DNA from: Chloroflexota bacterium
Lineage (GTDB): Bacteria; Chloroflexota; Ktedonobacteria; Ktedonobacterales; Ktedonobacteraceae
DNA: 6,750 nucleotides
Direction of reading: 5' to 3'
NCBI GenBank assembly: GCA_005879655.1
Contig: VBJK01000194.1
Coordinates: 1-6,750 of the forward strand
Shown: positions 6,527 through 6,642 of the stretch, one piece after another
How positions within the stretch are numbered: the stretch's first letter is position 1
Layout: each line of letters starts with the position of its first letter
The notes under the pieces: model-generated
Told to the model about the DNA's origin: nothing
Seen by the model: the letters and a program-made list of their open reading frames with translations, nothing else
Databases searched by the model: none
Made by a program: the position numbers and the translations under genes

Positions 6527-6642
6527 CCTTCCCGCATGTCTCACATGCTTGTGCTAATTCATGCATCCTTGCTCACGCTACGAGCCGTCCATCAGCTCGC
6601 CTCTACTGACCGTCCGATCGGCAGAGGCGAAGTGATAGCGTG
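6527..6642 (-). promoter_or_regulatory. Structured leader upstream of the 108-aa gene (copy D)
   Basis: A closing stem CACGCTA/TAGCGTG (6574-6580 with 6636-6642, 7 bp) encloses two hairpins. The first has arms GCCTCT/AGAGGC (6599-6604 and 6623-6628), with CCG/CGG inside. The second is CGAGC-N9-GCTCG (6581-6599), which competes for one shared base. Together they form a plausible three-way junction. After it, in transcription order, come AAGGATGCA (about 6570-6562), a perfect dyad GCATGT-N3-ACATGC (6534-6548) and GGAAGG (6532-6527). It does not have tRNA features (no GGTTCGA arm or acceptor geometry). The match to 290-391 in element order is the main evidence. A ligand-, protein- or translation-responsive leader is inference. 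Confidence 0.5.

What the first reader, a model, noticed from the sequence alone, without database searches (positions are those of the whole stretch)
6527..6548. Perfect dyad abutting the Shine-Dalgarno, shared by two distant genes
The 15-base dyad GCATGT-N3-ACATGC at 6534-6548 recurs exactly in its arms at 297-311. In both places it stands one base from an identical GGAAGG ribosome site, 8-9 bases before ATG. Over the 27 bases from the dyad to the end of the ribosome-site region the two copies differ at only four positions, all transitions, and none falls in the arms or in GGAAGG. Conserved arms with a variable loop suggest a repressor operator or a small RNA hairpin controlling ribosome access. 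The two genes it controls (108 aa and 57 aa) are otherwise unrelated to my eye.
Basis: partly seen in the sequence, partly recalled or inferred. Interest (0 to 1): 0.72.

Follow-up and report, generated by a model that had tools for sequence, protein, structure and literature searches.

The report
Shared start-leader module of two genes
Two unrelated genes on a DNA fragment of unknown origin carry the same control leader (a long hairpin, then a short mirror-image sequence touching the ribosome site), which looks like a new, small example of the start-associated repeats already known from some bacteriophages.

Summary
In detail: GCATGT-N3-ACATGC at 297-311 and 6534-6548, each one base from GGAAGG and 8-9 bases before an ATG on the minus strand. 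It is part of something larger. The two leaders align from GAGCA(A/T)GGATGCA through dyad and ribosome site (score 26; 0 of 2000 shuffles; next of 170 upstream pairs 16). Upstream of each lies a long hairpin; with a third at the left end these rank first to third among 2670 local folds, the fourth close behind. The two hairpins look homologous: 22 pairs form in both, 4 changed on both sides, whereas dyad arms and GGAAGG are identical. Both modules seem to head transcription units. The leader's 3' part is inferred before a 69%-identical relative of the 108-aa protein. Exact-motif scans gave chance-like hits; none lies in the 43 stretches fetched through related proteins. Best reading: a leader with the dyad as a sequence-specific operator; an RNA hairpin at the ribosome site is the main rival. 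Nearest known kind: SAS/ESAS of cluster K mycobacteriophages and similar phage repeats. New member of a known kind; host and regulator unknown.

The parts
6534..6548 (-). dyad copy B, GCATGT-GAG-ACATGC on the minus strand, 17 to 31 bases upstream of the start at 6517
6527..6532 (-). ribosome site GGAAGG of the 108-aa gene, one base from dyad B
6191..6517 (-). 108-aa gene, KVYHA...RSTSVGDVIV family, first gene of the long leftward gene row
   Evidence: no Pfam or NCBIfam family at the thresholds used (one Pfam match at E 0.18)
6562..6574 (-). shared element GAGCAAGGATGCA in leader B
6583..6645 (-). long imperfect hairpin B' upstream of leader B; may overlap the end of an uncertain reading frame 6578-6709
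   Evidence: fold z -4.12 for 6570-6645; third of 2670 local folds; pairs compared; frame
297..311 (-). dyad copy A, GCATGT-AAG-ACATGC on the minus strand, 16 to 30 bases upstream of the start at 281
290..295 (-). ribosome site GGAAGG of the 57-aa gene, one base from dyad A
108..281 (-). 57-aa gene; the one protein found is 96% identical (P0007)
319..331 (-). shared element GAGCATGGATGCA in leader A
343..409 (-). long imperfect hairpin A'; begins inside the TAG stop (408-410) of the gene upstream
   Evidence: fold z -5.53 for 340-410; second of 2670 local folds; stop read
18..107 (-). third long hairpin C, directly after the TAG stop (108-110) of the 57-aa gene; a leader behind it would lie mostly beyond the left window end
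   Evidence: fold z -4.62 for 1-107; first of 2670 local folds

Best explanation
Two copies of one intergenic leader module stand at the heads of two leftward transcription units. Order on the minus strand: long hairpin behind the previous gene (transcript end or processing site), 31 and 34 nt of linker holding GAGCA(A/T)GGATGCA and presumably a promoter, the 6-3-6 dyad, one base, GGAAGG, 8-9 bases, ATG. Shown: the parts, their order, the similarity of the two leaders, the fold strength of the hairpins, and pairs kept through changes between them. Inferred: that each module starts a transcript, and that a dimeric regulator of the element or host binds the dyad as DNA next to the transcription start, so that the 108-aa gene with the gene row behind it and the 57-aa gene are switched together.
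For: Leaders similar far beyond chance. Dyad arms and GGAAGG identical in 18 of 18 positions, while the 3' strand of the adjoining hairpin differs at 10 of 30 and 4 of the 22 pairs formed in both copies are changed on both sides: letters are held in the dyad, pairing in the hairpin. The three long hairpins rank first to third of 2670 local folds and two start at the stop codon of the gene before. The genes between 408 and 6517 mostly overlap or follow closely and carry no copy of the dyad. Leader inferred before a 69%-identical relative: residues MQERFRN at the start of P0002 fit a read-through of the leader; best of the two leaders, 14 of 20000 and 41 of 20000 random peptides fit as well under two controls (against A alone 1 and 13, against B alone 111 and 325). 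Cluster K phage Adephagia has a similar layout before gene 91: terminator-like stem, ESAS with putative promoter and inverted repeat, SAS (PMC11373665, passages).
Against: Only two copies. No sigma-70-type promoter match in either leader (the one match in the window is at 3276-3305 on the + strand). The distance between GAGCA(A/T)GGATGCA and dyad differs by 6 bases. No repressor gene was recognised among the window proteins scanned (not every frame was scanned). No dyad in the 33 stretches of the 108-aa family nor the 10 helicase stretches. The DNA behind P0002 could not be seen. Seven of 30 hairpin positions pair in one copy only, the fourth-ranked local fold is close to the third (-3.57 against -3.64), and one gap of 96 nt (3512-3607) inside the gene row lacks the module, so the row may hold more than one transcript.
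Confidence: 0.45

Rival explanations
1. The dyad acts as RNA: a 6-bp stem with a three-base RAG loop next to the ribosome site, bound by a protein or itself tuning ribosome access or mRNA stability.
For: It lies one base from GGAAGG at both genes; the stretch from dyad to ATG folds with the six-pair stem in both, total -6.7 and -6.9 kcal/mol.
Against: No change in the stem between copies, so covariation cannot be scored; the leaders as a whole fold no better than shuffles (z -1.28 for 282-345 and 0.12 for 6518-6582); the stem does not cover GGAAGG in either copy.
Confidence: 0.27
2. The module is a promoter and translation leader only; the dyad is not a regulator's site but part of a start signal or promoter sequence.
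For: Position at the heads of apparent transcription units; the conserved block includes the ribosome site.
Against: A perfect 12-base dyad is not needed for that (inference), and no sigma-70-type promoter match was found there.
Confidence: 0.13
3. A repeat spread by recombination: gene shuffling at a conserved seam, without regulatory role.
For: The similarity stops near the ATG; PMC4351075 ascribes some insertions and deletions to recombination between dyad repeats in cluster O phages (passages).
Against: Hairpins have diverged but keep much of their pairing; arms exact and distance to the ATG nearly fixed.
Confidence: 0.1
4. Chance similarity or assembly artefact.
For: As a bare 27-mer pair the match is reached or nearly reached in 4 of 60 shuffles.
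Against: Leader alignment 26 against a shuffle maximum of 17 in 2000; two exact dyads in 0 of 200 shuffles; relatives of both proteins on other contigs.
Confidence: 0.03

Closest known systems
SAS/ESAS of cluster K mycobacteriophages (PMC3203893, section 15 read whole; PMC11373665, passages)
   Same: Conserved sequence at the ribosome site of several unrelated genes, mostly behind gaps of more than 50 bp, with inverted repeats upstream of about half; in Adephagia a terminator-like stem lies ahead of an ESAS holding a putative promoter.
   Different: GGGATAGGAGCCC is not in the window at up to 2 mismatches. Here the dyad lies beside the ribosome site, not over it; the upstream element is one long hairpin with much pairing kept, whereas PMC3203893 finds little support for RNA pairing of the ESAS repeats; only two copies are seen.
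Start-associated repeats of Microbacterium phages, clusters EF and EG (PMC7302621, passages)
   Same: The EG 18-bp inverted repeat stands 14-22 bp upstream of start codons; the EF 13-bp motif sits at the ribosome site with a weaker motif upstream.
   Different: Neither sequence is in the window: GATCAACCNNGGTTGATC at up to 3 mismatches, GGGAAAGGACCCC at up to 2.
17-bp dyad repeats of cluster O mycobacteriophages (PMC4351075, passages)
   Same: Two invariant arms separated by three variable bases (7-3-7 there, 6-3-6 here).
   Different: 34 copies in Corndog, about a third in coding regions, not closely tied to starts; sequence not found here at up to 3 mismatches.

Membership tests
Cluster K SAS | 13-bp GGGATAGGAGCCC with at most two deviations | tested here: not met
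   0 matches in the window
Cluster K SAS | conserved sequence a few bases before the start codon, at the ribosome site, before unrelated genes | tested here: met
Cluster K SAS | 11-19 copies per genome, in the half with non-structural genes | not testable with these tools
   no genome is held for the window; two copies in 6750 bases
Cluster K ESAS | pair of imperfect 17-bp inverted repeats with a shared consensus, spacer mostly 4-13 bp, just upstream | tested here: inconclusive
   long imperfect hairpins with 4-nt loops, 31 and 34 nt upstream of the dyad, partly alike; no consensus can be drawn from two
Cluster EF SAS-like motif | GGGAAAGGACCCC at the ribosome site | tested here: not met
   0 matches at up to 2 mismatches
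Cluster EG 18-bp repeat | GATCAACCNNGGTTGATC | tested here: not met
   0 matches at up to 3 mismatches
Cluster O 17-bp repeat | TGTTCGGNNNCCGAACA | tested here: not met
   0 matches at up to 3 mismatches
Intrinsic terminator (long hairpins) | GC-rich stem followed by a T run | tested here: not met
   one search lists 5 sites on both strands, none of them hairpin A', B' or C; it lists dyad A (297-311) on the + strand
Rfam structured RNA | match at the family's gathering score | tested here: not met
   the only match up to E 5 is freshwater-2 at 3923-4014, 22.3 bits against a gathering score of 49.9

The most novel reading that the evidence does not exclude
A so far undescribed two-part leader family in an uncultured phage or plasmid lineage, in which a hairpin held by pairing separates transcripts and an invariant dyad touching the ribosome site serves one regulator that switches whole gene rows; a third copy is expected just beyond the left window end.
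Probability: 0.3. Interest if true: 0.5.

Novelty: new member of a known kind. Interest (0 to 1): 0.34.

Why it matters
Start-associated repeats are described in several phage groups, but the papers seen here call their role unclear. This module offers a contrast within itself, a hairpin that seems held by pairing and a dyad held by its letters, so the two parts can be tested apart. The gain is modest until more copies are seen.

Tried and rejected
Widespread operator: rejected for the collections scanned. Genomes: 8 loci (my estimate of chance, uniform bases, 257 billion bases on two strands and 18 fixed positions, is 7.5). Behind the motif within 20 bases, 0 of 8 have an ATG frame of 20 codons or more (two have ATG frames of 8 and 17); L001 and L006 have TTG frames of 56 and 77. 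Viral contigs: 0 for the longest pattern, 10 loci and 5, of which 2 repeat, thus 13 distinct loci. Of these, L055 has an ATG frame of 98 codons at fitting distance, L056 and L062 have GTG and TTG frames of 55 and 58, L061 a TTG frame of 20, L052 and L054 ATG frames of 9; the other 7 show none.

Known RNA family: no match near the features. tRNA or tmRNA: none. Integron attC sites were considered for the long hairpins and dropped by eye, not by a test; a hammerhead ribozyme was considered and has no Rfam match.

Relatives by protein in viral contigs: helicase 10 loci; 108-aa protein alone 0, its alignment 33; NUDIX protein 0; 101-aa protein 0. Annotated phages and plasmids, DNA: one match of 125 bases at the helicase end and none. 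Proteins: 108-aa protein none in phages and 4 weak plasmid records; helicase 608 phage records, all below 60% identity; P0017 3 plasmid records, none in phages. The regions upstream of the 33 family loci were printed, but start choice was automatic and often wrong, so no count is drawn from them; the exact dyad is in none of the 33 stretches. Host: P0017 matched 0 of 3, 0 of 296, 0 of 398 and 2 of 398 genomes, the two being weak with a stop inside. I suspected Chloroflexota (Ktedonobacteria) from recall alone; no locus of that group could serve as a centre.

Hairpin similarity: A'-B' score 15, 0 of 500 shuffles; A'-C 12, 19 of 500; B'-C 8, 268 of 500. C is therefore not claimed as a sequence copy. 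A' and B' are each other's best match in the window but by a small margin, 15 against 13 and 14.

Full report
What is there. The window has 6750 bases and 52% G+C. P0001, the protein of the 108-aa gene, is listed on three contigs of which the longest has 6750 bases, so the window may be a whole metagenome contig. The plausible genes run leftward and mostly overlap or follow closely. They include a NUDIX protein, a Pif1/Dda-like helicase and small proteins without a family. No genome is held for it. That it is a phage or plasmid is an inference from this make-up.

The dyad. GCATGT-N3-ACATGC occurs twice and, with two mismatches allowed, nowhere else in the window. Read on the minus strand, each copy is followed by one base, GGAAGG, and 8 or 9 bases to the ATG of the 57-aa and 108-aa genes. 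The bare 27-mer match is only moderately rare (4 of 60 shuffles reach 23 or more).

The larger unit. A gapped local alignment joins GAGCA(A/T)GGATGCA, the dyad, GGAAGGT and the next bases: score 26 against a mean of 7.8 and a maximum of 17 in 2000 shuffles, and 16 for the next of 170 pairs of upstream regions taken from 19 start positions that I chose, several of them approximate (one pair closer than 140 bases was left out). The genes behind are unrelated. Upstream of each leader lies a long hairpin, 343-409 and 6583-6645. A third, 18-107, follows the 57-aa gene. Fold z-scores are -5.53 for 340-410, -4.12 for 6570-6645 and -4.62 for 1-107; with the leaders included, 282-407 gives -3.56 and 6518-6650 gives -3.14. 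Over 2670 windows of 76 bases on both strands, corrected for G+C, these three places rank first to third (-4.28, -3.75, -3.64); the fourth, at 4641-4716 on the + strand, follows closely (-3.57). The other gap of similar size, 3512-3607, folds like its shuffles (z -0.73).

Two kinds of conservation. The 3' strands of hairpins A' and B', set flush without gaps, agree at 20 of 30 bases; shifts by 1 to 3 give 4 to 11. With each hairpin folded on its own, 22 of the 30 positions are paired in both: 14 unchanged, 4 changed on one side, 4 on both sides; 7 are paired in one only and one is unpaired in both. Two sequences cannot prove covariation, and each fold was chosen to be stable, but a strong hairpin kept at this divergence suggests selection for pairing. 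In the dyad and ribosome site the letters are kept instead, 18 of 18 in arms and GGAAGG.

A relative outside the window. P0002, 69% identical to the 108-aa protein, begins MQERFRNMVTNKSL where the window protein begins MSNISL. Its second methionine lies one residue further out than the window protein's start. The residues MQERFRN before it fit a read-through of the leader that starts at the ATG inside the right dyad arm, with gaps allowed. Taking the better of the two leaders, random peptides fit as well in 14 of 20000 and 41 of 20000 cases. This suggests that the end of the right arm and the ribosome site are conserved there; the left arm cannot be seen. In the wider family (681 proteins at E up to 0.001, best 120 listed) the start could be placed by a pattern in 92 of the 121 proteins on file; five have more than nine residues ahead of it, and only P0002 shows this extension.

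Search elsewhere. Exact scans gave chance-like results in genomes and viral contigs. Of the 67 loci on file the dyad is in 21, all fetched by the motif itself, one copy each; it is in none of the 33 stretches of the 108-aa family nor in the 10 helicase stretches. These are stretches of at most about 21 kb, not whole contigs.

How it probably works. Hairpins A' and C begin at or directly after the stop codon of the gene before, so each seems to close a gene row; B' may instead overlap the end of an uncertain reading frame (6578-6709). The dyad leader follows and opens the next row. Dyad B heads the row from 6517 down to 408, dyad A the 57-aa gene. I take the unit to be a transcript boundary with a promoter in the linker and the dyad as operator near the transcript start. 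The promoter and the binding protein are inferred; the sigma-70 scan finds no promoter there. An RNA hairpin next to the ribosome site remains the main rival.

Compared with what is known. Cluster K mycobacteriophages carry start-associated sequences at ribosome sites and, for about half of them, inverted repeats upstream (PMC3203893, section 15 read whole, passages). Its authors find little support for RNA pairing of those repeats, unlike the long hairpins here. In Adephagia a terminator-like stem, an ESAS with a putative promoter and the SAS lie before gene 91 (PMC11373665, passages). Microbacterium phages of clusters EF and EG have start-associated repeats (PMC7302621, passages), and cluster O phages a dyad with invariant arms and a free three-base centre (PMC4351075, passages). 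PMC12699233 was seen in passages. None of the four consensus sequences is in the window at the tolerances used. So it resembles these in layout and belongs to none of them by sequence. A search for papers holding the arm sequences with palindrome and operator listed three papers whose titles are unrelated. I make no wider claim that it is not in print.

Verdict. A real, shared leader module of moderate interest: a new example of a known kind, limited by two copies and an unknown host.

Noticed in passing
4488-5751: The Pif1/Dda-like helicase is split over two reading frames (4927-5751 and 4488-4841), the second matching a helicase C-terminal end; mutation, sequencing error or frameshift not decided.
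   Followed up: no
6191-6517: The 108-aa protein belongs to an unnamed family with the stretch RSTSVGDV invariant in the six aligned, 681 relatives at E up to 0.001 and 33 viral loci, two on contigs over 450 kb, without Pfam or NCBIfam family at the thresholds used.
   Followed up: partly
1-107: The window ends at the left just behind long hairpin C, where a third leader would begin.
   Followed up: no
4501-4513: Another short hairpin, CCTTGCAGCAAGG on the minus strand, touches the G-rich ribosome site of the gene starting at 4491.
   Followed up: no
3923-4014: Weak match to Rfam freshwater-2, 22.3 bits against a gathering score of 49.9, E 4.8, probably chance.
   Followed up: no
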